Assembly: GCA_000442125.1 (NCBI GenBank) | Contig: KE546979.1 | Span: 434,001 to 498,000, forward strand | Length of the DNA: 64,000 nucleotides | Direction of reading: 5' to 3' | Source of the DNA: Opeltia flavorubescens | Lineage: Eukaryota; Ascomycota; Lecanoromycetes; Teloschistales; Teloschistaceae | Shown: one piece after another, positions 10,500 to 61,748 of the stretch | Layout of the letters: each line of letters starts with the position of its first letter | Position numbering within the stretch: the stretch's first letter is position 1 | Translations under genes and position numbers: made by a program | Notes under the pieces: model-generated | Database searches by the model: none | What the model saw: the letters and a program-made list of their open reading frames with translations, nothing else | Told to the model about the DNA's origin: nothing

Positions 10500-10619
10500 G
10501 GTATCGTCTATAGTACAGAGGAGCTAATGCATACTACCAAATAGGCGCTGGATGCAATCTCCACAGTGCCTCATACTAATTAGGCGTGTTTTATTTGAGA
10601 TTTCATCCTACCTCGCTGG
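10500..10619 (+). repeat. MULE terminal inverted repeat, left
   Basis: 120 bp, inverted copy of 12784-12903 with no length difference and about six mismatches, clustered near 10567-10593. The last 17 bases overlap the 3' end of the transposase frame. Confidence 0.92.
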
Positions 10620-12717
10620 TGCTAAATGCCTCATTGCCTTCTTCATTTTTGACCTCGCTGGCGCCGATTTCCGCTTTGAATTCTTCTACTCCGCCACGCC
10701 TCAGGGGCCCAGTAATCCTATCCAGCTTGCTTATCCACCACCTAACCACCTCATCGGCGGCCTCCTTAGGCATAGCAGCCACCTGTTCCTCCAGCGCATA
10801 GTACCTAGACCGTATGCCATCCAGTGCCTCTTTTATATCCAGCCTCCGCCTCGCCGGGGCACCTATTTCGGCATCGATGCCTCGCTCAAAATACTCGGTA
10901 GTAACACGTTCGTAGATTTCAAAGCCGCTATCCTCCCACATGAATGTGTAGCGCTCAAAATCCTCCTCGCTTATGATATCATAGAGGATGTGCTGATGCC
11001 AGATGTGCTGGCATGGTAGCTGGTATTTGCGGTAGAATTGGCAGCTACACCGAAGCTCATCATCCAGTTCGTATGGATCTTCGCCAGCTGTAGCCATGAT
11101 ATCATTGGCTGCCTTGATTTCGTTAGCGAGCATGATTTGAACTGGTGTTGGTAGCTTGTATAAATAGGGGTAAGGAGCCACCTGAGGTAAGATGCAGCTT
11201 CGGAATTTTACTAGGGCTTTATGCGCGCGCTGGTCCCATTCTTTATCAACAGCTAGGATGTGCTGAGCAATGCCTTTGAGGCTAAACCGCTGCAGGATCG
11301 ATTTGCCTTCCTTATTCTTGATAGCGGAGTGGTAGCCTTCTACAGGCGAGGTGGTGGGCACCTGGAGGAGAAGCGGCGAGTGAGTTCGGTAGGTATACGC
11401 CCATTTTTCGCGTGTTTTTGACCATTCGTTGATAACATATTTCCTCTTATCCTCCGGTGCAGCATCGATGGCGGCCTGGATAGATTCCTCACACCCTATG
11501 GTAGTTTTGCGATAGCGGAGTGCGGCGCGCAGGTGCCTCTGCNCCTTTTTGCAATCAGGCCTACTCATAGTTCGTTTTAGGGTCTGCTCGGAGTGCCACA
11601 TGCATAGTAAATGGCTGACTTCGCCCTCGCCGGCGACCAAGCCAGGAAATGCCATCTTAACTGCTCGTTGCTCCGCCGCAGAATCATCAGTAAGCATGTA
11701 GCGGAGCCTCCACCCCCCCCTACCACCGCACTACTTCTTCAACACCTTCAGGCAGGCGGCGAGGATATCACCGTCTTCAGATTGCGCTAGGATATGGGCA
11801 CATGGGCGCCATGAGTTCGTTCCATCGCGTACTAAAACGGTATAAAGATACCAGCCTAACCAATTCGTATCATGTGTAGAATCCATTAGTGTGAGGTGGC
11901 CACGAAGGCGAAGAACCCCTAGTGCATGCTCAGGGGCAAAAACGGTAGCATGTGTAGGCGTGCCATCGGTACGAATAGCTTCAATTTTTTCGTGCCGGTA
12001 ATTCAGCTGAGAACACGGAGACGATGAGCTTAGAAAATACCAAAAACGGTGCTGACTCACTGTTTCTAGCCAATCAGCGAGCTCTATTTGCTGCTCTTCC
12101 CACCCATATCCCACACCGCCTACCAAACGCTGGTCCGGATTGGCTTTTTTCCACTCAGAACCGGCATTGTGCACATCATATCTGCTTAGGTGGTGGCCGC
12201 CGGCGGCGATGAGGGCTTCTTCTACCCCAGGGCGATGATAGGAATGAAGTGTTTTATTGATAGTTGCAGCAGTATAGCCGTTAGCTACCTCGCCGGCGGC
12301 AACTTGCTTGATTTTTTGATTCCGCTTCATAGCATCCATCGATTCAAGATCGTGATTATGCTCATGACAATTCCCGGTCCTTTCTAGTGTAAAATAGGTG
12401 GGTGTAAGCGAGATATCGTCGTCAAATGAAGTGGTAACTTTGAGCTTTATGCCACATGGATCCACCACACGAATGGTTTTTTTCCGCTCCCCCGTGCCTT
12501 TACTCTTGCGCTGCTCCTTATACCACCGCCGGCATAAGTAATATTCAACTTGGTGATCCTTCGTACGAGGCGATCGCTTGTTTAGGGTCCAAATATTCGT
12601 TACATAAGGCCAGTACTCGGCGTGTTGCTCAGCGGAAAGAACGATAATCTCAGGGAGCGAAAAGAGGCGGAGGCGCATAAGCTCGATGTCATCTGGATTC
12701 TGCAGGCGGCGAGTCAT
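10603..12717 (-). pseudogene. MULE transposase with one in-frame stop
   Basis: A single reading frame of about 704 codons is interrupted once by TAG at 11731-11733. The two halves (12717-11731 and from 11730 to 10603) are in the same frame, so this is one gene. From the N-terminus there is a FAR1/WRKY-GCM1-like zinc-binding region ending CHEHNHDLE, then the MULE DDE domain. The first catalytic Asp is in LTLMDSTHDTNW and the second in YMLTDDSAAEQ, just after the stop. A C-terminal SWIM zinc finger (CSC...PCQHIWH) follows. An N at 11543 hides one residue. The protein would bind the TIRs and catalyse cut-and-paste transposition. TAG could be a sequencing error, recent decay, or a RIP-like C-to-T change of CAG. 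Confidence 0.88.
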
Positions 12718-12783
12718 AGTGGCGATGAGCTCAGGGGGCGGCGACGAGGTATGATAGCGAAAATGGGTAGATAAATAAAAGCG

Positions 12784-12903
12784 CCAGCGAGGTAGGATGA
12801 AATCTCAAAAAAAACACGCCAAATTAGTATGTGGCATTGCCGAGATTGCATCCAGCGCCTATTTGGTAGTATGCATTAGCTCCTCTGTACTATAGACGAT
12901 ACC
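12784..12903 (-). repeat. MULE terminal inverted repeat, right
   Basis: Partner of 10500-10619. Read on the minus strand it starts GGTATCGTCTATAGTACAGA. Confidence 0.92.
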
Positions 12904-43977: not shown

Positions 43978-45257
43978 CTAGAGTTTCGAACTAGGCTGTC
44001 CAGATACCACATCGCCTCTTGCCGTGTCCCGCAGCTCCCAGACCAGATAGTAATTCCACTTGTACACCGGCTGGTCAGACGAACCGGAGCTACCAGAGCT
44101 ACTACTGCTCTCAGATTCACTGCTGCTCTCGCTGCTTTCAGACTCTTCTTCATCAGAGTTTTCATTGCCACTCTCACTCCCTCCCCCTTCCGATCCGCTC
44201 AGTGGTGGAGGCTCGTTGCTAACAGTGAACACATGAACAAAAGGAATCTTCCTCCCTAGCACATTGCTATGGTCACGGATCAAATATGCCACCCCGATGC
44301 CGTGAGGAGTGCCCAGCAACGCTTTACCGTCATCAGTGCGCATGTCATACGTATGTCCTGGCCACGGGAGGTCAAGAGTATCAGGATGATCTTCGAGTTG
44401 ATGAATTCTTTCAATGATCCCTCTTGTCACGTTGCCGTTGACTTTATCACGGAAAATAAAGCGAAGATTTTTCGCCTGGTCTCCTGCTTCCTTAGCCCAC
44501 AGGAGCCACACGATATCCGACCATCGGTTCATTGGCGGGATTTCGGCCGTTGGGCCTGCCTTGAATCTTGGTGAAAAATTCGCTTCTGAGATGATTGCAC
44601 CTTTGCTTGGATCAGGTATGTACTTGTTATGGTACATGGCTTTGGTGGGAGGCTAGAGCACCTCATCAGTGATATTCAGGTAAAAAGAAAGTCATGCAGT
44701 AAGTGAATCTCTAGATGTCAAGAATTCTCCTTCTGTCCTCATATACTTACTGTGTTCCGACGGCCATTTCGATCTGTGAAGTTATCATATTGATCAGCGA
44801 ATACTGGATGAATCTTCTCTGGAGCATGAGGCACTCCCAATCCCTGCAAAGCCGGCACTAAATCCGGAGAAACCTCCTTCACATCGTTCACCGTCGTCCA
44901 TCCACTGGTATTGAAGTCCCGCTGAGTCCAAACGCGAGCAGCCGGTGGATCTTGTATTATCATATTAAGAGTAGTGCTGCCTTTGCAGACATAGGATTGG
45001 TAGTTTACCGCTCGCTTGACGAGTCTTGATGGAGATTTTCTAGCGATAGCAGCGAGATCTCGAACTGGCTTATGAAGTTCATGTGAAATCCCAACCTTCT
45101 CTCGGGGCTGCTGGCCGTGGTATGACGATGTATGAATTGGATGCCGAACGTGTCCATCGGAGCGGACACCCGCTACAAGGAACAAAAAAATGAAGAAAAC
45201 AAAAAATGACAGAGTGCTCAGATGGAATCGATGTCCGAACCTCGTTTCCAACGACAT
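43978..45257 (-). CDS. Putative secreted protein, three-member family copy A, 393 aa
   Basis: Two exons, 45257-44751 and 44652-43978, phase-0 intron. The start at 45257 gives a clean hydrophobic signal (LSTLSFFVFFIFLFLVAGVRS); an in-frame Met at 45368 adds an unlikely extension. A dibasic KR closes the pro-region (RLVKRAVNY), then YVCKG. The second exon opens PPTKAMYHNKYIP and carries MNRWSDIVWLLW, LDLPWPGHTYDM, ALLGTPHGIGVAY, DHSNVLGRKIPF and HVFTVSN. An acidic Ser-rich insert (residues ~325-370) absent from the other copies precedes the last motif YYLVWELRDT. Function unknown. Probably enters the secretory pathway. Its neighbour at 45824-46943 is a tandem paralogue. Confidence 0.78.
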
Positions 45258-45823
45258 CCTGCTTGTCTTATGCCCATTGGACGATTGACGGGGTGGCACA
45301 AGATTAAGAAACGGATAATGCATATCAGATTTATGCTGCAAGACTACGAAAAGCAAAACTTTGTTCACTGGTTCATTTAGAGAATGAGATTTCGAGTTTG
45401 AGCATTCACTTTTTCACGAAATGCTACATCCAGACTTTACGTCCGTGGCAATACCATGCTTAGCAAAGTAAAACATGGCTACTTCCCAATCGATGCTATG
45501 GTCACAGGTCTTATCAGAAGATCTTCCTGAAGAAGATTTTCAACTGGCTCGACGGCAAATACAGCTCAGTTGCAACATCGGGGACACATTATAATCTTAC
45601 GAGACAGGTTTCTCGGAAACATCACGGCTCAAGTCAAATGACGCCACAGGGATTGTGAGTATTCCTTAGGCTGTAACTATGATTTAGACACCTTTGTACA
45701 AATAAAACACATCCTTCTCAGGCACAATCTCCCATTACCAATTCTCTTTCTGTCTTCTCAACAGATCGTTCTCCTAGGCCAGCCATCGCTGAAATCAAAT
45801 GTACAGTGTTGTGGATCAGATGA
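45258..45823. other. Intergenic between copies A and B
   Basis: 566 bp; promoter of copy A and 3' UTR of copy B. Confidence 0.5.
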
Positions 45824-46943
45824 TCAATTGGGGCCTGTTATGGTTTGTCGCAAGTACCAGACCATGAAATAATTGAACTTTTCTTTCGAAAATGGACTCG
45901 CGTTCCGAGCGGTGAAGATCCTGACAGCTGGCCATCTCGGCCCAAGAATATTCCGATGGTCCTTGAGCATAAAAGCCACACCGATTCCGTGTGGGGACGC
46001 AAGGAGTGCTTTTGTGTCGTTGGTGCGCATGTCATATATCGTGCCTGGATAAGGAAGATCGAGGTTATCAGGTTCGGCGACTTCTATGTACTCTATGAGT
46101 GCACGAGTTAAGGGCGTGGTGATGACTTCCTGTACGATGTTCCGGAGTCCTCCGGCTCTATTGCCGGCTTTTTGCGACCAGAGCAGCCAGGCTATATCAG
46201 ACCAACGATTCAGGACCGGCTCCTCCATTCCTGGACTTTTATACCTGGGTGCGTGATTATTCTGGGCGATAATGGTACCGTTGTCGGGGATGTATGTATT
46301 ATAGTATTGTCCTTGTGTGGGCGGCTAGTCACTACAATGTCAACCTGGTCCGTTGCATGTGGGCCAGCCCGATGTCTTGATTCAGAGGGCTCCTGATGTC
46401 TCACGTGGAAGCGGGATATTCTTCACTTACTTTCTCTCGTCCATCCGCACCTGTGAAATATCTATGCTGATCGGCTTCCAGGTAAAAGGTGACATCTGGG
46501 TCATGCTCGGGTTTTATTCCCAATGCTTTCAACTCTCCAAAGATGGCTTCATTAGGGTCCCAGTCCTGGTCCTCGACATCCCAAGCGACGTCAAGATCAC
46601 GCTGTGTCCATTGTCGAGGAGAGGGAGGGCCGTTACGAAGCATTCCGAGAGCTATGTCGCCTTTGCAAACGAGGGTGTCATAGTCAATGGCTCTCTTGGT
46701 CAGTTTGGATCTGGAGCCAACTGCAAAGGTGGTACTATCGTGCGATATGTCATCGAGACCGAATGGGACAATATCTTCGGACTTAATTTCGTGACTGAGA
46801 TGCTGCGAAAGGGGCTGCTGATTATTGGGAATGCTGTGGCGATCATGGGACGGCTTCGCTAAGAGTAACAGAAGGAAGATCGAGAATACAGTTACCAACA
46901 GGCCTTTGAAGACACGTCGAGACTGTGTCCTCGAGAGCAACAT
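45824..46943 (-). CDS. Putative secreted protein, three-member family copy B, 337 aa
   Basis: Two exons, 46943-46431 and 46324-45824, intron phase 0 at the same place as in copies A and C. The N-terminus has a short basic stretch and a hydrophobic segment (LLVTVFSIFLLLLLA), either signal peptide or type II anchor. KLTKRAIDY is the dibasic site, followed by LVCKG and RQWTQRDLD. Exon 2: PPTQGQYYNTYIP, LNRWSDIAWLLW, LIEYIEVAEP, LDLPYPGTIYDM, ALLASPHGIGVAF, DHRNILGP, VRIFTARN and WYLRQT. It lacks the acidic insert of copy A. Same strand and order as copy A, so a tandem duplication. Function unknown. Confidence 0.78.
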
Positions 46944-48177
46944 TTCGGTCTCTTGAAATATGCTTTATTAAACGGGAAGGACAGACTTCGTGAAACAGCA
47001 GGAAAAGGATCGACTTGATGACTATCAGGTAAGGACAGACCGATCGAATAGAGGCATAAGAAAGACACAAGGGATGATGGAAATCTTTGCATAGCAAGTC
47101 ATGACCATGATTAAGAAATTACCGCAGCATGAGCTTAGGTTCTTTCACGCACCTATCCACTTTCTTCATTCGACGCTGCTCTTGTCGTAACGATATCATC
47201 ACCAAGGCTTTGGCAACGACCAGACCTTTGATCGGACCCTTGACCAGATACTTCATGCCAGCAGAAAGCCTGTACATCAGCCGTTCACGAGTGAGACAGA
47301 TGAAGTGCAGTACTTTCATGAAGAATACTTTAATAAGCTATCGCAACCTGTTTCACACTTACAGGTATTGGGAGGATACCTGAGAGGAATCTGGTTTGTG
47401 CAAGAGGGCAGTCGCAGATATGACTGGCGAAGTAGATCAGTATGAGGTCCCATGATTCTGCTAGGAGTCCTGCATTGTAACGCAATAGAAGATCCGTCGC
47501 ATCTGAAATATGCAAGATGTTATAACCCATTCTTCCTGTCGTTGACTCCCTACGCAGTGCTCGTACCCTCTGATATCCTCGGAACTCGGATTGCAGGCCG
47601 CTATACCTCGCTCCCAGTGTATTGGACTTAGTCTTAGAAGCAGGTCATCTGCACTCGCGCCCTTCATAGCAGTTACTGAATGAGTTCATCGGCTTGAAAA
47701 TACATGGTGCGCCATAGTACAGGCGCACGTTTTTGGCATAGTCATAGCTTGAAACAGAAAGAGTGTATTGCTAAAGATGTGGCACATCCAAGCCACTTTT
47801 CGCTAACACTAAAAAATCGCGAATGAACTCAAATCTATTCCCATCATGCTCATAACCATAGTAACTTGATTTGACCTTGCATTGGCGATTGCGTATAGTT
47901 CATAAGGCTTTCAGTCGTAATTGAAAAGTTCGATAAAATATATGGTAAGATCTATTACGATATTCCAATAATCAAGGTCGAGAGGGCAAAGCAAGTTATA
48001 TTATATCGGAGAAAAGAATGTATGACATATTGTGTGAAGATTTGATACAAGGCTTCTGACGGAGAGCGGTGGTCATTACGTCATTCACATCCAGGAAAAT
48101 CACAAGCTGCAATTGGCTAGTTCCTTGCAAGGGCAACATCGAGGTGTCGATTTCAAAGAAGTTGAAAAGGGGCTCAC
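46944..48177. other. Intergenic
   Basis: About 1.2 kb between divergent genes. Only short frames; no trace of a further copy of the three-member family noticed. Confidence 0.45.
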
Positions 48178-49105
48178 ATGGCGCATGACATAAAGAGCAC
48201 AGGCACCCAAAATGCAAAATTCTGGGATCCCACATTTTTGACACATAGTGCACTCTCAGGTAAGCGGAAAGACGCCTCCCCACTGTACGCAGTCGTTGTC
48301 GTCAATCAACCAGTGGAAGACAAGCGGCAACTGCTGGATCTCTGCAATGGAGCCAAAACGGTTGTGTACGCCGATGGAGGAGCCAACCAGATCTTCCATC
48401 TCGCGACGACAGAAGAGGAACAACAGGCTTTGGTAAGTCGATTGTCGCTGAAAGCATAAAGATAGAATTACACATACTGACGGTGAGACCCAGTTCCCCG
48501 CTGCGATATGTGGAGACCTGGACTCAATAGAACCTGATGTCGAAAAGTGGTATGCATCGAAGCAGGTTGCGATCATCCGTGACCCAGATCAGTATTCAAC
48601 AGACTTGACCAAAAGCTTGAAGTTTGTCAAAAGCATCGCGCCCGACTGGTCGTCGAGACCGGGGGACAGCCAGCCCAAGTCCTCCGCAGGTACTGAAGAT
48701 GTGCTGAATGCGGTGATCGTTGGGGGTATTGGAGGTAGATTCGACCAAGGTTTTTCCCAATTGCACCACTTGTACACTGCAAGTGAGGATACGTCTACCT
48801 TCGGAGGCCGACTCTTTCTAGTCAACCCACAGAGCATATGCTTCTTACTTCGGAAGGGGTTGAATCACGTCAAGACTCCGGTCGGGCCAGGAAATTTTGG
48901 CGAGTGTATTGGTATCATACCAATTGGTCGCCCATCTGTCATAAGTACGAAAGGTCTCGAATGGGATCTTCATGGCCAGCTCACAGAGTTCGGTGGCTTG
49001 TTAAGCACCAGCAACCATATCAAACGGGGGTGGATAGAGGTTGAGACATCGGAAAGAGTCTTACTTACCATTGAACTGGACCCTTCAAGGTCGAGCAGCT
49101 CATAA
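48178..49105 (+). CDS. THI80: Thiamine pyrophosphokinase, 288 aa
   Basis: Two exons, 48178-48432 and 48494-49105, in frame. Transfers pyrophosphate from ATP to thiamine to make thiamine diphosphate in the cytosol. The N-terminal nucleotide-binding part shows VVYADGGANQIF and ICGDLDSIEPDV, then the substrate motif DQYSTDLTKSLKF and VIVGGIGGRFDQGFSQLHHL, all diagnostic of eukaryotic TPK. The C-terminal beta-domain contains IIPIGRPSVISTKGLEWDL and FGGLLSTSN. Length is close to yeast Thi80 (about 319 aa). No thiamine riboswitch is evident in the single intron. Essential gene in most fungi. Confidence 0.95.
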
Positions 49106-49450
49106 AGGCAAATATCTGAAAACGACTAACCGAGATCTGTGAAAATTCCGGCTGTCATCATGCTCAGGTAATGCAGACAATCGCGTCGGAGCCTGCATTG
49201 GTGATCATTGAAAGGTCCGAGGCGCATTATCACCAGGAACGACCTCTGCTAGCACCCGATAAGTTCCTGCTCAATTTTGGAATGGATTGCTTTGGTTCTC
49301 CGCTGGACCCGTTGGCGGGGTTGGAGAACTGCGGGAGTACAATGATCTCATTACGTAAGCGAAGGCGGGGCCCAAATGCGGCGGCTGCAGTTGTATGAAT
49401 TTCTGCCTGCATCTTATCACTTTACCTTTTCGCATTGAATACATAATATT
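49106..49450. other. Intergenic
   Basis: 345 bp; 3' UTR of the kinase gene and promoter of the next. Confidence 0.5.
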
Positions 49451-50566
49451 ATGGCGCCTGATCTCAACTCCCTCCCACCGTCACGATCTCCAGTCTATAC
49501 TAACGGTTTAGACCGGAGACAGCCGACCTCACCCTCACCACGATCTTCGTCCGTTTCACTTGCCGCAGCTGCTACCATCAATGCTGGCATACAACATCAA
49601 GACTCTCGTCGCTCGTCGATCAGCTCTCGGAGTAATCAGCAACCAGCCATCCCTGGTAGAGCAGAGCGGAGAAGATCCAATGTTGCCATGAATCTTGGTC
49701 TCAATGACCCAACCTTACCGGCACCTGGAGAGCTCCAGTCAAGCGACCACCGCATACCTACAGGGCAACCGTTCCGAACCTCAAGTCCACATAGCATAGG
49801 ATCCCCAACGACGGCTCCACCCCACCACCGTGCGCCGAGCTTGGGAGAGCTACATCAAGAGCTCGAGCAGGAGCAGGAGGCTCAAGTGGTCAGTCATGGC
49901 GTCGCCCATCGGCCAGGATGCCTAGATCTTCGAAGCTTAATGAAGGTATAGAATCGCCTATTAGAGATGATCCGTCAGCAACAAATTCAGCTTCAGCATA
50001 TGCAGCAACAAGCGAACTTCACCCCAGCTACGAGCACTGCGGCGGTCGACAGCTCCACCCCTACATCTGAGCGGTCACTATCTTTTCCCAACGTTCCAGC
50101 AAGCGCGCCAATATCGATCAGCAATCCAGGACCAAGGTCTCCTGCCGTTCGTACTTCCTTCGAACTCTCTCGTCAATCGTCCCGGGCGTCTCGCACACCT
50201 AGTCGTGGAGGATCACCTTCACTAAGACCTATTTCTGCTGCGATGCAAGGGCAAGGCGAGGACTGGATTCTATCTGGTGGCAGCCAGAGCGGTCGAGACG
50301 ATGTTGCCTATTACCAGGCTGAAACACAGATGCTTACCCGCGAGAATCAGATGCTCAAAATGCGTATTAGGGAGCTCGGTATGCCCACTGCAATCCTACT
50401 CTGGGAGGTCTACTAACGTCGGACAGAGCGTCAGCTCAATGATGGAAGCTCTGTGACGACCAATAGTCCTAGCAATCCCTCGAATCTGGCGGGACCGCCT
50501 CTGGGTGTAGATCGGGAAAGTGTAGAGGGGGACGACCATGCAGCAGTAGAAAATTCCCAGAGATGA
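49451..50566 (+). CDS. Ser/Pro-rich protein with C-terminal leucine-zipper-like coiled coil, 334 aa
   Basis: Three exons, 49451-49888, 49952-50378 and 50427-50566, in frame. Mostly disordered and Ser/Pro/Arg-rich. Helical elements: LGELHQELEQEQEAQV running into NRLLEMIRQQQIQLQHM across the first intron, and TQMLTRENQMLKMRIRELE running into RQLN across the second. The second is a heptad leucine zipper that could dimerise. No basic DNA-binding region precedes it. Similar uncharacterised proteins occur in filamentous fungi. Function unknown. Confidence 0.75.
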
Positions 50567-51152
50567 ATATTTCCGGGGTACAGGTGTCATTGGACTGGAT
50601 TGCAGAAGTGGTCGAGAAAGTCGACAATATGAATGCAAGAGCTTTCGCTGGCAGGAAAGGGGGAGCTTGACATGACATTACGATATACCCCCCTATAGAT
50701 CGATCTTGAGTGTATCACTTAACCCATTTTTCACCTCTTCACAAAAGCACATACTATTTACATCTTGAGATATAAGGGCCAAGACTCATGCAAATGGCTG
50801 CGTCGGGGCTATCATTGGCTGTTGGGGAGGAATGAGATGTATTTCGGTAAAGAAAAAGAGACGAGATCGGAAAATCGCGGGGAAGAAACGCGTCGAGGGT
50901 TTTGGCGCTGGACGGCTAGTCGTGACCGTGTCAGCGACCTACTCAATTCCCAATGGGCCTGCTTCCTTTTACCATTCGAATGATAAGCCAGAACCTGTTG
51001 AAGACTGGTCTTCACATTTATGCTACACAACAGACAACGTTGAGCAAGATGCATTGATATTGAGCACTATATACTCCTTCTTGTCCTCCTCTTCTCCCTC
51101 CTCTTCCACGACCACTTCCAGGTTCGACTTCGCACAGCAGACGTGTGCCGGT
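50567..51152. other. Intergenic or 5' UTR
   Basis: 586 bp. The reading frame of the FHA gene stays open upstream to 50832, but that stretch is not protein-like. Confidence 0.45.
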
Positions 51153-52786
51153 ATGGCATATGACACACCGAGCATGGACTCTTCTCCTTCAAGCCATCGA
51201 TCTTCTTCTTCGCAAGTAGCTGGCGTCAAGCGTCCCGCCCCCTCTCTTCTGCCAGCCTTCGAACCCTTCTCTTCGCCAACATTGCCTCGACCCACCAAAC
51301 GTATTGCCCGCGAGTCTCCTCCGAAACATGGATCCAAGCAGCAGAAGTATCCCACCCCAATTCCTACATCTTCTACTGGCATTATGTCTTCTTCCCCACC
51401 TCGTCACGCCACAACGCGTCGCCCTGGCCTGTCCAGAAATCATTCGATACTTTCGGAACGAGCCCCGCTTGCTACTGTTCCAACCATTGAGCTCGATGAG
51501 CACAGCCAGCCTATCTTGATGGGCAGATCGACTAACTCGTCACACTATCAATTATCCACTAACAGACTGGTTTCCCGCGTCCACGTCCGAGCCGTTTATA
51601 TTCCTGCTGATCCACCAACACCAAGCACTATTCGGATCGATTGTCTAGGCTGGAACGGAATCATGCTCCATTGCGAACACAAGAGCTGGCCATTGGGAAA
51701 GGGGGACAGTTTCACATCAGAAACGGAAGATGCGGACATCATGATCGATGTTCGGGACGCACGTGTATTGTTGCAGTGGCCTAGGGACAAGTGCAAGCTC
51801 GCAACGCCTGCCGATTCCGATTCCACTTGGGATGGGGATTCTCCTTCACGTAGGCATGCTGTGCACCAGCATTCGTCACTTCAAAGCCCATTACGGCGTC
51901 GAGTACGCATGGAATCGCCAGTCTCCCCTTCCAGAGCCGTTCAAGCTTCGAACTCCTTATTGGCATCTGCTCCTGAGCTATCCATTCCAAGCCCAATACA
52001 CGTCTACGTCGATGAAGATGTCCGGGAGGAAGAAGAACAGGCCGCTAACACTCAGGCACAAGCCACTCAATCTACGCAGGTTGCTTCTCAACCTTTAGGT
52101 GCCCTACTGGATGACTCCCAGTCTAGTGTCCTAAGCGATCCTCATGACTACTCTGATAACGATGAGGAGAATGATCCTATCGTGCATTCTTTTGGACCCT
52201 TTGGCGCCAACCTCGACTCTCGTATGGCGGCTATCAATGCACATTCGTCTCCCGCACAAGCTCGGTCCGCTCTCAGTCCTCTCAAGGCATCGAGCGTTTC
52301 CCCTCAACGTCTTCGCCGTACTGGTCCCTCGCATGATAAAAAGGAGGAAGTCCATCCCGTGGTCAACCATGTGATCAACCAATTGGCTTACTCTCGTCTT
52401 GCATCAACACCTCTGTCCACAATCATGACTCATCTACCTGCTCACTTCAAAGATACCAAATCAAATTCCAAAGAGAATACTGCACTCACCTTGGACACAT
52501 TGAAGCGTATGCTTGATTCTACAGGCTGCATCGGAGAGGTTCCCAGAGAAGGAAAAGACGCTGCAGGCAAGCCATTGGAGAGCGAATTCTACTACATCCC
52601 CGATATGGATGATGACGCTAGTAGACGTGATTCTGTGGTAGATGGGCTTCGAAAGCCAGGTTTGAGAGCTTGTCGAAAGCAACACAAGGTTCGTTTGACT
52701 ACCGAAGCACTTTTCTCTCCCATGTACTGGATAGTGACTGACCTCTATGATCTATGAAGCAATACTACTGGCGCAAGCCAAAGTGA
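51153..52786 (+). CDS. FHA-domain protein, Plm2/Tos4-like, 520 aa
   Basis: Two exons, 51153-52688 and 52760-52786; the last exon adds only QYYWRKPK. The FHA domain (residues ~115-215) carries ILMGRSTNSSHYQLS followed by NRLVSRVHVRA, the phosphothreonine-binding loops. The C-terminus YYIPDMDDD and KPGLRACRKQHKQYYWRKPK matches yeast Plm2/Tos4, chromatin-associated G1/S and replication-stress regulators. The middle is disordered, with many SP/TP sites. The start at 51153 (MAYDTPSMD) is chosen because the extension to 50832 is unconvincing. The small last exon would be lost if the main frame were read through to 52757. Confidence 0.85.
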
Positions 52787-53793
52787 CTGCGCTACTCCTG
52801 GACTCTCACCTCGATGGTCACCAGCGGTTTCTATTGTGACCATTTGGTTGGTCCTCGCCCATAAACATTGTGATTTTTTGGGACAGCCACAGCAACACTC
52901 ATGATTGCTATTCATCTTGTACATCTGCATTTGAACACCTTTTCTTGTCATTACTTTTTTCAACAGGATACCGTGGCATAGCGGGGGCGCTGTGGATCGA
53001 TTTTGCCCATGCATGGTTTTCCCTCCAATCTGTTGGAAGAACAACACTTTAGCCTCTTCATATGACGGAGGAGCAACTCATGACTGATAGAAAAGCATAG
53101 CAATTCCATTTGTGATCGATTGAATGGTTGTCTTCATTTTGGGTATNGAGCAACTCATGACTGATAGAAAAGCATAGCAATTCCATTTGTGATCGATTGA
53201 ATGGTTGTCTTCATTTTGGGTATTCCGATTCCTGCCTCTTCAAACTCGAACTTTCCCTCGAGGCTTCTTGGTACAGACTTTTCACTGCAACTCGGATCAC
53301 CATTTATACATTCAACGACATTTTCCAGACTAAAGCACGTTGTTTGTACTGCTTCGCTTCCTTGTCTCTTTTCTACGATAACCGCGTACTAAACACAACA
53401 GCCTACCTGTTACGCAATTATGACCATCTCATTCGTTTTCTAGTCCTGTCATGAAGCTTCCCCTTTTATCGTGCCACTGGCATTTATCATTACTATGGTC
53501 AGGAGCAGCATTCTCTTTCGTTGCGGATGGATATCGCTCATAGCTTTTCACAACCTTTACGTCTTGCATCGCATCGGCCCTGGCTTATGTACCCTTGAGA
53601 TTAATGTAAATCGTAAATCATTCCTGTCTCTACCGTTTCCATGTTTTGAAGTGAGAGAACAGCACACAGTGTCTCCAACGCTGACCAGCCCGCTTTTCCA
53701 AGCAAGATAACCAGGTCTTGACAAGGAACCACCACTTCCCACCTCATCAAGAAAGGAGGATCGGATATACTTATGGCAGGGGAGAGGTATCCA
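52787..53793. other. Intergenic, contains an N-flanked duplication
   Basis: About 1 kb between convergent gene ends; only short frames. It holds the 76-bp duplication described separately. Confidence 0.5.
53071..53223. repeat. Perfect 76-bp direct repeat separated by one N
   Basis: 53071-53146 and 53148-53223 are identical by eye and separated only by N at 53147. Two contig ends with an unmerged overlap explain this best; a true tandem duplication is less likely. Confidence 0.9.
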
Positions 53794-54483
53794 TCAGCGC
53801 CTCTTCTTCAAAAACACATCTTTAACAAACAACGTTCTCAAATCCAATTCCTGATGCTTCATCCCCCCTTCTTCCTCCTTCGCTTCCTCTCCATCCCCAA
53901 CAACACCATCCTTACCTCGAACACAGTCTATCCAATACCGATAATAAGCACCATGGAATCTCTCCCTTCCCGTCCGCGTCAAATATACACCCGCATCCTC
54001 TTTCGCGGTAACGCTAGAGTCCCGAAGATAATAAGGGAAACACTGGCCGCTGGCTAGGAGCCTGCTGAATCTTTCGCATGCTGAAGTGACGATGAGTTCG
54101 TTGCGGAGGAGACGGTTCGCTAGCTGATGATGGTTTTCATCATCCTGATTTTGTCGTAGGTCCTGGCCCTGAAATCTGTTCCTCTGGAGAAGAGCGACTT
54201 TTTCGGCTGAGGCCCAGTAGCTGGACATTCTGCCCCGACAGATTTGTATGGCGTTGCTGAGCCAGATTAAGTAGATTTGTTTGCAGGATTTTAGGAGGGG
54301 GAGAATGGAGGTTGTGGTCGGGAGGGAGATGAAGATTTTACAGATTAGTTCAGGGGGGAGGGAGAGGATTGTGGGTTGGAGGTTTTCGATTCCATCTTGC
54401 TGTTGCTGTTGCTGTTGCTGCCGAGATTCTATGAAGATTAGGTGAGGGAGTTCAACGGGATGGGTTTCTTGGGCGGATGACAT
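53794..54483 (-). CDS. F-box-like protein with polyQ, 229 aa
   Basis: Single exon. An eight-Gln tract lies at residues ~22-29, coded by alternating CAG/CAA repeats. An F-box-like motif spans ~37-75 (ILSLPPELICKIFISLP, ILPLLKSCKQIYLIW), of the type that recruits Skp1/SCF ubiquitin ligase. The rest is helical without leucine-rich or WD repeats, with an acidic tract EEAKEEEGG near the C-terminus. Substrate unknown. Typical of the many small F-box proteins of filamentous ascomycetes. Confidence 0.72.
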   Translation of the reverse strand: MSSAQETHPVELPHLIFIESRQQQQQQQQDGIENLQPTILSLPPELICKIFISLPTTTSILPLLKSCKQIYLIWLSNAIQICRGRMSSYWASAEKVALLQRNRFQGQDLRQNQDDENHHQLANRLLRNELIVTSACERFSRLLASGQCFPYYLRDSSVTAKEDAGVYLTRTGRERFHGAYYRYWIDCVRGKDGVVGDGEEAKEEEGGMKHQELDLRTLFVKDVFLKKRR

Positions 54484-55444
54484 TTTTAGTAACGGGTTGG
54501 GATGGGGTTACACTATTGATCTCGACAAGGAGTGGACTATGGGCATGACGATATTTTCGACGGAAGTGTACATACCTACATGGCTGGTTCTTTTGGGCTG
54601 GATATGATTGATGTCTTTTGTCGTTGCCTGGGGTGACGACGCGCGGCCTGGCTGACGCGATACTGAACGGCCTTCTTTGGCCAGACATGGATTATTGTAT
54701 TTGAGTATAGTTGTAGCGGAGGCATTCGTCCATGCTTATTTGATTTTCGGTGTTTAGTTTGCCCTTGGTATGGCCTTCGGCGTATTTGGCACAACGCGCT
54801 AAATCCCAGCAACTTGAACCGGAATCGCAAGTTGAGATACAGAAAGTAATGGGTGATGGAAACTATTGCTTGAAGGAGATTAATATTGACCTATCTTCAA
54901 TTCTGAATTCACATGAATTGTGTTTAGGCTAAGAAAAAGTATTCATCGCGAGAAGGACGAGATAAAAAAAGTATAACCATCTTAATCATTCTTCAACGGT
55001 GACAACGTCAAGTCAGGCAACCTCCAAAGTAATTAATAACTCTCCCAATCAAATAGCCGAAAGCTAAATCTGACACTTTGTGGGTGTCCTAGGCAAGGAA
55101 ACTTCCGCACATCTTTGATGACGATATACCTAAGTATCGTGGACTCGGAAAGGTTGAATGCCAAATGAGCGAAAAAAGAAGTTGCAAGGGATATTATGAC
55201 AAGACTGCTACGGCACAGTATTTCTAGAAACGAAGAGCTGTCGAGACAGATAAAGCAATGATTTTGACGAAATCTAAAGATGAAAATCTATGGTCTTTTT
55301 CCTTCCTCACCTTGAACAATGTCCACCTCGCCTTTCTCTCTCTCTCTGTGCATGACATGATGCTACGACGACGTGTCGTTTGCGGGCGTAAGATGAGTAT
55401 TATTCATTACTTTGGTATCTGGCTATCGGCGGGAGTCCACTCTC
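54484..55444. other. Intergenic
   Basis: About 960 bp; promoter of the F-box gene and 3' UTR of the hydrolase gene; no gene seen. Confidence 0.5.
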
Positions 55445-56566
55445 CTATGAAAGTTTTCTTCTCAACCATTCCCCCATAGCCGTCGCCATCTTGTCCGCTT
55501 CCTTTTTAAAACCCAGCATGTTTCCCAACAGGAAGATATCATGTGGGACACCTTTATCCTCATGAATCTCCACGTCATTGCCCTCGATACCCCTCATACC
55601 CTCCGCAAACTTCAAGATATCATCGGCTAGAACCTCCAGCTCTCCAAGTTGGACCCACAAAGGTATGCCCTCGCACTCGAATGGATGATCTCTGGGAGAG
55701 ACGTAGGGATTTGCCGCATCAACAGTCGGTTTCGGAGCATACGCCTCAATTCCCCATTGTGCAAACACGTCATCAAGAATATCTGTACCATAATTCCGAT
55801 TTCCGCTGCAAGACTTCGGCAGCATTGATCTTCCAGGGCAGACCCAAGCGCACCAGAGTAGCGCAGCACGAGGTTTCGGCAAAACATCAGGATTGTCGTT
55901 AAGGTAGCGGAGGAAGCCAATGGCCATGTTCGCACCGGCGGAATCTCCGGAGATGATGATGGAAGAGGCGGGGATACCGCGGTCAAGGAGGCTTTGATAG
56001 GCTGTTACTGCATCTTGTAGAGCAGCGGGGAAACGCCCGCCAGGGTTAGAAGACAACCGATACGTGATACCGAAGACCCAGGCATCAGTATGGGAGGTCA
56101 TAAGCGAAGCGCCGTAACCCAAGTCTTTCTTCCGGCCATCACCGACGATGAAGGCACCGCCGTGGAAGTGCAGGATGACATTTTTACGCTTGGCGTCACC
56201 GGGTCCGTAGACGGTAGGGTACCACGTTGCTCCGATCTCAACTGGCTTGATCTCCGGGTCCTTGAAAGCGCCTCGGTAGATATCCTTGTTGCTTGGGGCG
56301 ATTCGCTCAAAGCGCTCCTTTTCGGCGCCAGGGCTAAGAGACCAGGACGGATGATCTCGTACATGACTGGAATGATAATTTAATGTCTTTGCAACTGTGA
56401 TCATGAAAGCTTGTCTTAAGCTATAAGACGGATGCTGGCGGAGAGCACGCGGGAGAAGATAGAAGAACCATAACGGAGCACGGACAGCTGTGATGGCGAA
56501 TATTGTAAGTAGATAAATAGCTTTGAACGGCTGATATGGAAGGAGGGAATATATTGAGGAAGCCAT
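55445..56566 (-). CDS. Alpha/beta hydrolase, hormone-sensitive-lipase (HSL/type IV) family, 373 aa
   Basis: Single exon. The oxyanion-hole motif is ILHFHGGAFIVGDG, the nucleophile Ser lies in IISGDSAGANMAIGF, the acidic residue is probably in LGELEVLADD, and the catalytic His is in KGVPHDIFLL. An N-terminal hydrophobic segment (residues ~12-36, AIYLLTIFAITAVRAPLWFF) suggests a membrane anchor. Substrate unknown: esterases of this family range from xenobiotic or secondary-metabolite esters to lipids. No biosynthetic neighbours are evident. Confidence 0.87.
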   Translation of the reverse strand: MASSIYSLLPYQPFKAIYLLTIFAITAVRAPLWFFYLLPRALRQHPSYSLRQAFMITVAKTLNYHSSHVRDHPSWSLSPGAEKERFERIAPSNKDIYRGAFKDPEIKPVEIGATWYPTVYGPGDAKRKNVILHFHGGAFIVGDGRKKDLGYGASLMTSHTDAWVFGITYRLSSNPGGRFPAALQDAVTAYQSLLDRGIPASSIIISGDSAGANMAIGFLRYLNDNPDVLPKPRAALLWCAWVCPGRSMLPKSCSGNRNYGTDILDDVFAQWGIEAYAPKPTVDAANPYVSPRDHPFECEGIPLWVQLGELEVLADDILKFAEGMRGIEGNDVEIHEDKGVPHDIFLLGNMLGFKKEADKMATAMGEWLRRKLS

Positions 56567-57220
56567 TGTTTCTTCCAGTGGAAGAGTAATTGACGTCCGT
56601 ACATTGGCGTGTCTAATTTATTTGATTCACGAAAGTGTCCCCGCACCGTCAAGCTGAGGTGAGATCGGGATCACGACATCCGATCCTGGTCCTTCGAGTT
56701 GCCGAGGTTGTGAGATAAAACGGAAATCGGATGATAATTATCCTTCAGGTTCTTCTCCACCGTTCTGCGCTGACTGACCGGAGCTGGAGACTCTGCTACC
56801 CTCGAGAAACGATGGGTGCTCTGTTCTGGAAACCCAAGCAAAGTATGATGATGCGTGGTATTGATTCAATGAGCTCCAGCCACACCCGTGACACAATCTC
56901 AACCGCCTTGCCAACCAAGATCTACCGGCGCATATCGGAAGTAAAAGAGAAATATGAAACATGGATCATGAACCCTAAAACACGCGGCACGCTTCTCCAC
57001 GTTCGATTCGAGTATGGCCCCCACGGATTAAAAGCCATTAGTATGAAATAATCATTAGCACGAGAGTGTAAAGGTGACTATCCAAGGGTGAGGGCACAAA
57101 TTTGTTTATTATGTCTGTAAATTTGACCGCCAGGGTACATAGCAGCATTAAAACCGCCTTTTGGCGCCGTAAAGAAGGCTCTTGACGAGCATAGAAGAAG
57201 AGAATGTAACCCCGTCGCCA
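56567..57220. other. Intergenic
   Basis: About 650 bp. A 106-codon plus frame (56731-57051) is present but has no recognisable feature and is not called. Confidence 0.45.
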
Positions 57221-58306
57221 TCAAGTGCAGTCCTCGCTCTCAAACATCTGGAGCAAAGGTCCAGGATTCCCTTGCGTATCTAACAACCACGAATTACAAA
57301 CATTCGTGTCATCGTTCGACAGCTGATTCCCCGTGTTCCAGAACACCCGATCTATAAACCCGCTGTTTTTCGCAAACTTGTAGATGTCCTTCATGAATGC
57401 GCCTGCCTCATCCCAGCTAAGCTGGCAATTAGCATTACCCGGTGCGACCTCGGTGATCCACAGCGGCTTGTCGTTGAACTTGTTATGGAAGGATGTGACT
57501 TCATTGATGACCTCTGCCGATGTTTTATGATATTGATGAATGTTGTACGCCGAGAAAAAATCCTTGCACCCGCACGCCGCGAAGAACTGGTCTTGCCAAC
57601 TGCCATCGCTGGATGCAGTCACAGGTGCGACAAATTTGGTCTTGGTGCCAGGATTATCGAGCAGTTTTTTAATGGCCGCCGCTGCTTCTTCTGGCGTCAT
57701 CTTTGGCGTATAGCCCATGTATGAGAAATCAGGTTCGTTGAAGGTAAGCAGCCACTCTGGTGCGTTCGGACCATTGACCAATTCGACCGCTTGATCAACA
57801 TCCTTTTGGAAGGCCATCATGGGGACATGCTCATCTATCGTGCGCTCAGATGGTTGGCCACTAGGCATATCGATCTGGAAAGTGAGCCAGCTGGTGGCTG
57901 ACTGGATTTTGTCATACATTGGGAGTTGAAACCCGCCGTTGAAGCAAACGCCTTTCAGGGCACCACAGTTGCCAGTGCTCGCTGGAAGTAAGCTAGTGTG
58001 ATTAGATGGAAAGCTAACGAGTTTGGCTGCCGGTTTGCCATGTGCGGTGTTGCTTGATTTCGAGCCGGAGGTGGAACCACCGCTTGGGGACGGGGTTGCG
58101 GTTGAAGATGTGCTTGAAGTGGCAGACGAGCTACTTGAGCTCCCAGAGTTGCCAAGGATTCCAGAATTATCGACAGTGACGTTAGTCAGAAGTCCAGGAC
58201 CGTTTTGAGCACCTTGTTTCTGACTGGCTTGCTCCCCCAGTTGCCTCCGCGTACAGCGAGCTGATACGGACAGTGCAAAGAGAAAGCTAAGGAGGAAAAA
58301 ACGCAT
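57221..58306 (-). CDS. Secreted glycoside hydrolase, GH128-like (Asl1-type beta-1,3-glucanase), 361 aa
   Basis: Single exon with signal peptide (MRFFLLSFLFALSVSA). A Ser/Thr-rich linker follows (residues ~55-90), then the (beta/alpha)8 catalytic domain. The acid/base Glu is in WLLTFNEPDFSYMGY and the nucleophile Glu in KPLWITEVAPGNANC. The N-terminal edge GVCFNGGFQ and the late VFWNTGNQL also fit the fungal glycosyl-hydrolase catalytic-core family, which cleaves beta-1,3-glucan. Probable cell-wall remodelling or fungal/plant glucan degradation; the exact role is inferred. The last residues FESEDCT keep a Cys that may pair with another in the domain. Confidence 0.87.
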   Translation of the reverse strand: MRFFLLSFLFALSVSARCTRRQLGEQASQKQGAQNGPGLLTNVTVDNSGILGNSGSSSSSSATSSTSSTATPSPSGGSTSGSKSSNTAHGKPAAKLVSFPSNHTSLLPASTGNCGALKGVCFNGGFQLPMYDKIQSATSWLTFQIDMPSGQPSERTIDEHVPMMAFQKDVDQAVELVNGPNAPEWLLTFNEPDFSYMGYTPKMTPEEAAAAIKKLLDNPGTKTKFVAPVTASSDGSWQDQFFAACGCKDFFSAYNIHQYHKTSAEVINEVTSFHNKFNDKPLWITEVAPGNANCQLSWDEAGAFMKDIYKFAKNSGFIDRVFWNTGNQLSNDDTNVCNSWLLDTQGNPGPLLQMFESEDCT

Positions 58307-60584
58307 GATGGCAACTGTGTGAATGCTAGAGTAAAGGAATGGATGCTGGAGTCTGCTTATTGAACGTCCCTACCAGGGGAGAATAGAGAGGATGCCAGGT
58401 ATCGAGCTATATTAGAACGAGGGTATAGCACAGCACAAGCAAGACCGAACACAGAACGGCCTTCTATTATAGACAAAACAAGGAAATTGGATGCAGAGAG
58501 CTGTATTTGATATGTGAACAGTGAGAGGGATCTCCCCGGTACGTAGGCGGCACACGGCATCTTGAAACGATATTCTGACTAGGTGTGGAGATTGTTCAAA
58601 GAGAACAACGAATGCGTGCCGGTGACTGTGAAGTGCGGGATGGAGGTAGACTAGGCGTCGAGGCCGTAGCGCATGCAATATTAAACTTGATACAGGTTGT
58701 ATAGCCGCAGGGATGGGCCGGAATCATTGGACCCATAATGCAGAAGCGCTGTGCTGAATAAATATGTAGAAAGAAACGAAAAGCTTATTTCTGCAGCAAA
58801 TCGGATGGACAGATTTCCTGCTTCGTGATACTTATAGAAGCAAAGTTATGATGGGGGACTGCAAAGCCGCATCCGGGCCTGCACGTGAATACAGAATTTT
58901 GGTTTGGCATTTCGGCTTACTGGTTCATGATAGGCATCACAACTTCCGTTCGGGTCGCAAAACTTTGCTCAGGGTTCGGAGAAAAGGTCATCAGGACTTT
59001 GACGGTAAGAAGGATTGTAGGGAGCTCTACGGGATGGAGGAAGATCCTCTTTGATATTTCACGTTTCGAGCTAAATCCAATGAAGCCTAGTTTTTCTTCG
59101 CTTCCCGTCCAATCCTAATTGAACCCCCCTTTTTCCCCACTGATTATTCCCTAAATGTGATGCATGCGGATTATATATCAAAAGCTTCATCTTTGCTTTG
59201 TCAATGACGATCACAATCTCACTCCTTTAGGTTCAGGTCTTCGTCTAGGCGGAGCCGGAAAGAAATGAATGAGAGCACATTCTTGAAGAGCTCTTGTTTA
59301 TGACAGGCCCTTTTGAAACACTTATCCGCCAGACGGCCTTTCCCGTGAAGTCACGGGAACCACTCCTGTTCGAAACAACAATTCAAGTGGTAAAGAACAC
59401 AAGGGAAGTCTTGAAACTGGACGGCTCAGATACCATTTCGTGTGCCATCATACGTTGTGACAATTCTGGTGGATGACATCATTGGTGGTATACTGAGCTA
59501 CTGCAACTCATTCACAGAAAACTTTATCGGCGGAATTTTCCAAGGATTCTCATCAAACCCAGTACATTGCAGTAGTTCCTTTAGGAGATGATCCTCGCAC
59601 GACGACCGTTATCTGCAATGCTGTTCTGATGCATGGACCTGTATTGGGACTCCCCATCCCAATTTGGAAGCAGTCCATGCCCTCGAATCATTCATATAAC
59701 TTTCAGGCATGGCGTATATTCTACTCGATTGGCTTCAAGTGCAGGATACCTTTGCCCTTGCTGCAAACGTACGACGATTGGTACCATTTTGCTCTATCTT
59801 ATATCTTACATATGTCGCCCTGATCTTCCGTCGGCCCACACCTATCTATCTGCTCTCAAGGCTTCTTAGCTGTTCCTGTCTTACCGGCGAGTCCTCCGAA
59901 GCACTCCACACGCTGTTACACTATCATAAACTGAGTAAACTCTTACTCCAGATCAATACAAGTCGGCGGCATATTGCCATGCATGAGGTCAAATCCTATT
60001 CCTGCATCATGTTCGCCACTTGTCTCATGAATGGTCTGAATCGATGTTTTCATTCTGTAGCTGTGATCTCGTGCTGTTCATTTAAGTTCTGTGGTTGTGT
60101 TAAGCACATTCATAGTTGAACTCGCTTCAATTTATAGAGGCCATGATGAACTATGATGGAATGGCTAGCCCGAAGCCTCTGTAGGTGAAAGATGTAGTCA
60201 ATGTCTTCTTCGTCTTTCATAGGCAATCTATAACAGCACACACATGTGTCTTCAATGGCAACAGTTATAGATTTGACCGTAGTGACCTGATGCATCATTC
60301 AGCTTACCTTTGTAGACTTTGAGAGTTTGGTAGGATTCTCAAGGTGAACCATGTTTTTCCTTGCAGTCCCTGTGCATCACTAGATCATGAAGACCTAAAC
60401 GATTGAACATCTATTTGGAAAGCTGATAATATATTCTTCACCGCACTTTCCTCTTATGTCCACGGTCGTTTCTTAACCCACAACTATTTGGCATGATTTC
60501 ACAACCTCTTCTCTCTTTCGTCTTTGCAAAAGTCCAGCCATTAAACCCAACTTTTTTCTTTCCTTTCCCAAAATAGATAGCAGT
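58307..60584. other. Long intergenic, no gene seen
   Basis: About 2.3 kb between divergent genes. Short frames only (longest 136 codons at 59709-60119, no motif). This is the largest gene-free stretch in the window; a noncoding transcript cannot be excluded from sequence alone. Confidence 0.45.
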
Positions 60585-61748
60585 ATGTCGTTCCTTACCA
60601 CTTTAGCACGCCGACACCTTTCCCTAACCCTTCCAATCCTTGTAATCTTTACTCTGTTCCTCCTCTCTTCGAAGCACCTGAAACAAGACACCAAAATCCC
60701 CTCATACCATCGTCATCCCTACAAGCACCACCTCCAAAAACGTGCCTCTAATTCCGATACCTTCGCCACCAACATAACCAACATCAACCCTCTCAAAGAA
60801 CGAGCCAACGGCAACGATGATGATGAGCACTTCTTTAACGTATACAAATGCAAAGGTGAAAAGGCCCTCGACATGATTAAGAACAACCCACCTCTCGCCC
60901 GAGTCTTTACACGCCAGGACCAGGTTGACGCGTGGGAGGTTATTGAGGAAAAAGGCATCACACAAAGCACAGTGACAGCACTTCAGGCGCTAGGAATCCC
61001 CCACGGCGATAACGACTATAGAAACATCCTATCGTATCAAACGCAGCAGGTCAAGGGTCCCGACGGTTCCATTCACGTGAGTGTTCATCTCTACTCCCGA
61101 ACCAACGTATGATTCCAAGTACTACACGCGCAGCACCATAGATTTCTCCGAGAAAAACACCTCGCGTCGATGCTTTATTACTCGGGATAGCAGCATCATA
61201 ATCACTCCAATTCTGCTAACATATATCTTCATTAACCTTAGCCCGCCACCGAAGCTGAATACAATAATTTCTTCATCCCAAACCCCCAAAACGGCACCAT
61301 AATCGCCAAATACAACCACTCGCCCCTCCAAGCCCGCATGGGCAACAATCCCGTCCCGGCCTTGCACCGTTGGTCTGATGTCGTATGGCAGAATTGGACC
61401 GACATTGCTGGCTCAGAAGCGCGCAACCTGCGTTACATAATCCAAGAAAACATCATCACACCCGAGGTCCGAAAGCTGATCGAGTACATCGAGGTCGAGG
61501 ACCAGCCTGATAGTTTGAATCTGCCGTGGCCGGGTAACGTGTATAATATGTCGAGTGAGGACGGTCTGGCGCTGCTAGGATGCCCCCATGGGCTCGGGGC
61601 GATGTGGTTGGTGGTTGATCATAGTAATGTGCTTGGGAGGAAGATACCGACCGTGAGGGTTTTCACGGTAGAGTCTAGTGAGAGGCCGGGATTAAGACTA
61701 TTTAGGTGGCTTTATTATCTGGTTTACGAGTTGAGGGATACAATTTAA
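60585..61748 (+). CDS. Putative secreted protein, three-member family copy C, 332 aa
   Basis: Two exons, 60585-61076 and 61242-61748, phase-0 intron of 165 bp at the same place as in copies A and B. The N-terminus is basic then hydrophobic (LTLPILVIFTLFLLSS), followed by a Lys/His-rich stretch and two dibasic sites (LQKRASN and, further on, KERANG). YKCKG, RVFTRQD and ALQALGIPHGD lead to the splice. Exon 2: PATEAEYNNFFIP, LHRWSDVVWQNW, LRYIIQENIITPEVRKLIEY, LNLPWPGNVYNM, ALLGCPHGLGAMW, DHSNVLGRKIPTVRVFTVE, ending YYLVYELRDT. It lies about 14 kb from copy B on the opposite strand. Function unknown. Confidence 0.78.

What the first reader, a model, noticed from the sequence alone, without database searches (positions are those of the whole stretch)
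43978..61748. Three-member family of unrecognised putative secreted proteins with a shared gene structure
Copies A (43978-45257), B (45824-46943) and C (60585-61748) share one layout: N-terminal hydrophobic segment, dibasic site, CKG motif, a phase-0 intron immediately before P(P/A)T..xY, then RWSD(I/V)xW, LPxPGxxYxM, ALLxxPHG(I/L)G, DHxN(V/I)LG and (R/H)xFT. A and B are a tandem pair; C is 14 kb away on the other strand. I know of no named family with these motifs. Local expansion, fast divergence and secretion signals suit a role at the cell surface or in interaction with other organisms, which is inference.
Basis: partly seen in the sequence, partly recalled or inferred. Interest (0 to 1): 0.75.

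Follow-up and report, generated by a model that had tools for sequence, protein, structure and literature searches.

The report
Three old fungal secreted-protein paralogs
Three related fungal genes make proteins that look as if they enter the secretory pathway and are trimmed on the way; none of the protein and structure libraries searched names the family, and its job remains unknown.

Summary
A, B and C are three intact, homologous two-exon genes (393, 337 and 332 aa; pairwise blastp E 8e-60 to 1e-72), with phase-0 GT-AG introns at the same place and all the listed motifs. One detail needs correcting: the shared cleavage motif is not a dibasic site but L-x-x-R|A (LVKR|A, LTKR|A, LKER|A), which fits the published Kex2 motif (PMC8528282, passages).

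Best reading: Kex2-trimmed secretory proteins whose mature domain (253-311 aa) has no match in Pfam, NCBIfam, PHROGs or PDB sequences and no credible relative in the bacterial, viral, phage or plasmid scans. No fungal genome collection could be searched, so 'unnamed in these libraries' is shown; 'lineage-specific' is not.

'Local expansion with fast divergence' is not supported: synonymous sites are saturated (pS 0.75-0.78) while pN is 0.39-0.42, so these are old duplicates under purifying selection. An RNase T1/powdery-mildew-effector reading was tested and not supported. Both AlphaFold jobs failed (pLDDT 33 and 40), so fold and activity stay open. There is no direct evidence for an effector role. 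Interest is modest.

The parts
44751..45257 (-). copy A exon 1: hydrophobic segment, pro-region, Kex2-type site, start of mature domain
44653..44750 (-). copy A intron (98 nt, phase 0, GTAAGT...TAG)
43978..44652 (-). copy A exon 2: conserved core and stop
44065..44202 (-). acidic/Ser-rich insert found only in copy A; probably exonic, since 0 of the 16 GT(A/G)...(C/T)AG pairs of 45 nt or more in the stretch keep the frame
45165..45221 (-). copy A N-terminal hydrophobic segment (residues 13-31)
45012..45023 (-). copy A Kex2-type site LVKR|A (residues 79-82)
   Evidence: motif definition
44979..44987 (-). copy A CKG, lone Cys91
46431..46943 (-). copy B exon 1
46325..46430 (-). copy B intron (106 nt, phase 0)
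45824..46324 (-). copy B exon 2
46857..46913 (-). copy B hydrophobic segment (residues 11-29)
46692..46703 (-). copy B Kex2-type site LTKR|A (residues 81-84)
46659..46667 (-). copy B CKG, lone Cys93
60585..61076 (+). copy C exon 1
61077..61241 (+). copy C intron (165 nt, phase 0; four in-frame stops)
61242..61748 (+). copy C exon 2
60615..60671 (+). copy C hydrophobic segment (residues 11-29)
60732..60743 (+). copy C further candidate site LQKR|A (residues 50-53), not at the homologous place
60792..60803 (+). copy C aligned Kex2-type site LKER|A (residues 70-73)
60849..60857 (+). copy C CKG, Cys89

Best explanation
A, B and C are old paralogs coding for prepro-proteins of the fungal secretory pathway. 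The N-terminal hydrophobic segment takes them into the ER. A pro-region of roughly 45-55 residues follows and is cut off in the late Golgi by a Kex2-type protease at L-x-x-R|A. This releases a mature domain (253 aa in B, 259 in C, 311 in A with its insert) that begins shortly before a conserved (Y/F)xxxxCKG, is probably N-glycosylated, and goes to the cell wall, the medium or the vacuole. Shown here: homology, gene structure, the invariant L-x-x-R-A, saturated silent sites with less changed amino-acid sites, and absence from the libraries named. Inferred: targeting and cleavage. The mature domain's task is undetermined. I think a conserved extracellular or wall-associated function (an enzyme or a binding protein) more likely than an arms-race effector, because the core keeps many invariant polar residues and evolves under constraint.
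For: Gene models and homology. L, R and A of LxxR|A are invariant in 3 of 3 (L79, R82, A83 of A). P4 Leu, P1 Arg and P2 Lys (A, B) or Glu (C, among the five best alternative P2 residues) match the published Kex2 preference (PMC8528282, passages). Each protein has its hydrophobic maximum at residues 11-31 (KD19 2.54, 2.53, 1.94); of the windows starting at residue 61 or later, none exceeds 1.0 in A or B, and in C three do (up to 1.29, near residue 271). Sequons: 4 in A, 3 in B, 5 in C; two places are shared by two of the three (NGT of B186/C181; N-x-S of A194/C189), none by all three. Constraint: pS 0.746/0.784/0.760 against pN 0.388/0.416/0.422; the part before the mature domain diverges more (pN 0.462-0.563) than the mature part (0.366-0.389).
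Against: No signal-peptide predictor, RNA or proteome data were available. The hydrophobic segment is long and RR precedes it in B and C, so a type II signal anchor is possible. No fold: AlphaFold pLDDT 33.2 and 40.3. With silent sites saturated, dN/dS cannot be estimated properly and positive selection at single sites is not excluded. Function of the mature domain rests on inference alone.
Confidence: 0.6

Rival explanations
1. Secreted effectors of the RNase-like (RALPH/CSEP) type: one intron at a shared place, Y-x-C near the mature N-terminus, clustered genes, and an LPxPG..Y stretch that looks to the eye like the EWP...G..Y stretch of RNase T1.
For: YVC (A) and YKC (C) near the mature N-terminus; one shared intron; A and B lie 566 bp apart. 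CSEPs share relative intron position, YxC and clustering (PMC3582587, passages).
Against: No Pfam ribonuclease match reported at E up to 10 for 3 full proteins or 7 pieces (HMMER's filters drop most matches above about 0.1). Profile comparison with a single RNase T1 sequence gives probability 0.1%, 10 aligned columns, without a positive control. B has LVC, not Y/F/WxC. No conserved second Cys. Helices are predicted at the place of the RNase strands, at very low confidence. Mature domain 253 aa or more against 104 for T1.
Confidence: 0.04
2. Type II membrane proteins of the Golgi or ER: the hydrophobic segment is an uncleaved anchor, the pro-region a stem, and the conserved domain works in the lumen.
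For: Long hydrophobic segment (19-residue maximum up to 2.54), RR before it in B and C.
Against: The invariant LxxR|A just before the conserved domain would release it in the late Golgi (for the motif); no match to any luminal enzyme family in Pfam.
Confidence: 0.2
3. A secreted Cys-His-(Asp/Asn) hydrolase: the lone invariant Cys at CKG, the invariant His of PHG and the DHxN group form an active site.
For: In the mature part one Cys, three His and several acidic residues are invariant in 3 of 3 (C91, H144, H286, D296, H297, N299 of A); a lone Cys cannot form an internal disulfide in A or B.
Against: No match to any peptidase or transglutaminase family; among three sequences many residues are invariant by descent; no confident structure to place the residues.
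Confidence: 0.12
4. Host- or competitor-directed effectors of unknown fold.
For: Probable secretion and Kex2-type pro-domain; putative Kex2-cleaved pro-domains were reported in about 30% of 120 secreted effectors (PMC8528282, passages).
Against: Kex2-type trimming is not confined to effectors (general knowledge); no expression or host data; few Cys; old, constrained duplicates.
Confidence: 0.12

Closest known systems
Kex2-processed pro-domain (K2PP) secreted fungal proteins (PMC8528282, passages)
   Same: N-terminal hydrophobic segment, pro-region, LxxR/KR site in the first half, then a conserved domain
   Different: K2PP is a processing class, not a sequence family; none of its named members was compared with A, B and C here
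RNase-like CSEP/RALPH effectors of powdery mildews (PMC3582587, passages; PMC9816061, passages)
   Same: one intron at a shared place, aromatic-x-Cys in two of three, clustered genes
   Different: no ribonuclease profile match, no second conserved Cys, larger mature domain, helices predicted (low confidence), Kex2-type pro-region
Type II Golgi membrane enzymes (general knowledge)
   Same: basic residues, long hydrophobic segment, stem-like stretch, luminal domain
   Different: conserved release site before the domain; no family match

Membership tests
Kex2-processed secreted protein | Kex2 motif: P1 Arg, P4 Leu or aliphatic, P2 Lys preferred (Glu tolerated) | tested here: met
   LVKR|A, LTKR|A, LKER|A aligned in 3 of 3; motif
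Kex2-processed secreted protein | signal for entry to the secretory pathway | tested here: inconclusive
   hydrophobic segment by Kyte-Doolittle only; signal peptide and anchor not separated
Kex2-processed secreted protein | cleaved mature form found outside the cell | not testable with these tools
   needs proteomics
RNase-like (RALPH/CSEP) effector | sequence-profile similarity to the ribonuclease T1 family | tested here: not met
RNase-like (RALPH/CSEP) effector | Y/F/WxC near the mature N-terminus | tested here: inconclusive
   A YVC and C YKC, but B LVC
RNase-like (RALPH/CSEP) effector | Cys near the C-terminus, disulfide to the YxC Cys | tested here: not met
   A and B have one Cys in all; C's second is Cys278 of 332 and is not shared
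RNase-like (RALPH/CSEP) effector | RNase T1 fold | tested here: inconclusive
   models too poor to judge
Any Pfam, NCBIfam or PHROGs family | match above the curated score or E-value limit | tested here: not met
   Pfam's only row is Gp3-like with A (11.7 bits) and with its exon-1 piece (13.5 bits) against a cut-off of 23.6; 0 families for the 3 members of A2 at E up to 1 in PHROGs and NCBIfam

The most novel reading that the evidence does not exclude
The mature domain is an undescribed secreted fungal protein fold or enzyme family, activated by Kex2-type cutting, with a catalytic lone Cys near its N-terminus.
Probability: 0.1. Interest if true: 0.6.

Novelty: new member of a known kind. Interest (0 to 1): 0.3.

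Why it matters
If the family proves widespread and unnamed, it would be a useful new domain entry for annotating fungal secretomes, with three sequence handles: LxxR|A, CKG, and the RWSD...LPxPGxxYxM...ALLxxPHGxG core. By itself, a small family of secreted fungal proteins without a known domain is common (general knowledge).

Tried and rejected
Own-genome search: no genome is held for this window, so copy number and orthologs could not be examined.

Relatives elsewhere. IMG/VR with the full, core and exon-2 alignments (66, 24 and 66 pattern matches, 0 confirmed; searches used the same two peptide patterns) and with a DNA pattern for ALLGxP(H/N)GxGxA (4 stretches; tblastn best E 0.061, A2 profile best 0.74, A6 profile best 0.014, in L002). 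These four were picked for the pattern, so a short likeness there is expected; taken as chance and not followed. Bacterial/archaeal genomes: 28 pattern matches, 0 confirmed, 35 matches, 1 confirmed at E 2e-6 relative to the candidates only. That one, L001 of a Verrucomicrobiia MAG, is 40% identical (best segment) within residues 2-46 of the 52-residue core, around LPYPGTTYEF. It lies in an open frame of 961 residues (running off the locus) that looks by eye like repeated fibronectin-III/Ig-like domains (not scanned), in 66-70% GC DNA; by eye that frame has none of RWSD, PHGxG or DHxN. Judged a chance match, not tested further. Phages and plasmids: no match with exon 2 of B at E up to 0.1.

PDB by sequence: best E 0.25 with A1, no row with A6, 0.32 with A4, 0.046 with A cut before its insert; all taken as chance. 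Chloroplast PARC6 appears weakly in two of these (0.92, 0.26), not followed.

Structure: two AlphaFold jobs too poor; fold search was therefore not run.

RNase T1 idea: not supported. Hidden intron in A's insert: 0 of 16 GT(A/G)...(C/T)AG pairs of 45 nt or more within the 174-nt stretch examined is a multiple of three; rejected within that scope.

Papers: text search for six short stretches (three occurring in A or C, three variants) in 5.39 million papers, 0 found; figures and most subscription journals are not covered. Other searches were by topic. I have an unverified impression, from memory alone, that similar ALLGxP(H/N)G proteins occur in other ascomycetes; no call tests it.
Full report
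Observation. The three gene models are right as read from the sequence. Joining the exons gives uninterrupted proteins of 393 (A), 337 (B) and 332 aa (C) from ATG to stop. The introns are 98, 106 and 165 nt, begin GTAAGT, GTAAGT and GTGAGT, end in TAG, are phase 0, and sit at one homologous point directly before P(P/A)T. Read in frame, each intron holds stops (C's four also).

Correction. C's dibasic KR is not where those of A and B are. In the alignment the invariant feature is L-x-x-R-A: LVKR|A, LTKR|A and LKER|A; C has a further LQKR|A upstream. According to Outram and colleagues (PMC8528282, passages seen) Kex2 takes Arg almost exclusively at P1, prefers Lys at P2 but accepts others with Glu among the five best, and prefers Leu at P4. 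So the conserved thing is a Kex2-type site with its extended motif, just before the conserved domain. That is a stronger argument for the secretory pathway than a hydrophobic start alone.

Anatomy. Each protein has one N-terminal segment of transmembrane strength (residues 13-31, 11-29 and 11-29). I cannot tell a cleaved signal peptide from a signal anchor with these tools. Sequons number 4, 3 and 5; two places are shared by two of the three proteins. The mature part has one invariant Cys, at CKG; C alone has a second (Cys278). A alone has an acidic/Ser-rich insert near its C-terminus, which no frame-keeping intron of the tested kind explains (0 of 16 pairs).

Age and selection. Synonymous sites are saturated (pS 0.746, 0.784, 0.760, where random letters would give about 0.75) while pN is only 0.388, 0.416 and 0.422; the mature part is more conserved than the part before it (pN 0.366-0.389 against 0.462-0.563). 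At third positions of conserved Ala, Gly, Pro, Thr, Val, Leu, Arg and Ser codons with the same first two letters (mostly four-fold sites), 24 of 74, 22 of 71 and 24 of 64 are identical. These are old duplicates kept under purifying selection. The tandem pair A-B is only somewhat closer (41% identical by blastp; 52% in exon 2 up to A's insert, by tblastn) than A-C or B-C (35-36%; exon 2 41% and 46%). Saturation forbids a proper dN/dS, and positive selection at single sites is not excluded.

Relatives. Nothing in Pfam (3 full proteins and 7 pieces), NCBIfam or PHROGs (3 members of A2), PDB sequences, IMG/VR, bacterial and archaeal genomes, phages or plasmids (exon 2 of B) is a credible relative. 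The scans of contigs rest on a few short patterns each, so they miss distant relatives. The one confirmed bacterial hit is judged a chance match in a repeat protein. No fungal genome collection is available here and the window's own genome is not held. The absence therefore says 'not named in these libraries', not 'not found elsewhere'.

Fold. AlphaFold with the family's own sequences gave mean pLDDT 33.2 (C, intron read through, plus exon pieces of A and B) and 40.3 (exon 2). Neither supports a fold search. Both place helices at RWSD..W and at ALL..PHGIG.A, which is weak and not independent, as the alignments overlap.

RNase-like effector hypothesis. I raised it because of the YxC start, the single shared intron and the clustering, all described for powdery-mildew CSEPs (PMC3582587, passages; for YxC and the RNase-like fold also PMC9816061, passages), and a likeness by eye of LPxPGxxY to RNase T1. 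Tests went against it: no ribonuclease profile match, profile comparison probability 0.1% with a single T1 sequence and no positive control, no second conserved Cys, and B lacks the aromatic residue.

Neighbourhood. Of 10 further open frames scanned between 35.7 and 63.8 kb, 6 matched Pfam at E 0.001 or better and are ordinary: Sir2, a class-II glutamine amidotransferase, thiamin pyrophosphokinase, an alpha/beta hydrolase, a glycosyl hydrolase (Glyco_hydro_cc) and a CHCH protein just under its cut-off; 4 had no match. Of 9 scanned elsewhere in the window 8 matched. I see no sign of a biosynthetic or pathogenicity cluster, though not every frame was scanned. That the host is a filamentous fungus is inferred from introns and gene content; the organism was not identified.

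Verdict. A real, old family, unnamed in the libraries searched, of probably Kex2-trimmed secretory proteins.

Noticed in passing
53071-53223: An exact 76-nt direct repeat flanks a single N at 53147: the end of one piece equals the start of the next, so this is most likely an unmerged assembly join and not a biological repeat. The other three single Ns (6837, 11543, 15136) show no such overlap.
   Followed up: yes
10603-12804 (-): Two adjacent open frames look like a transposase-like protein: SWIM zinc finger in one, an RNaseH-like domain in the other (the latter below Pfam's cut-off). There is an N at 11543.
   Followed up: partly
44065-44202 (-): Copy A alone carries a low-complexity acidic/Ser-rich insert before its last conserved segment.
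   Followed up: yes
57224-58369 (-): A glycosyl hydrolase (Glyco_hydro_cc, E 5.6e-38) with a hydrophobic start (by eye) lies between B and C.
   Followed up: no
L001 5001-5120: A Verrucomicrobiia repeat protein shares a stretch around LPYPGTTYEF with the family core; judged a chance match.
   Followed up: partly
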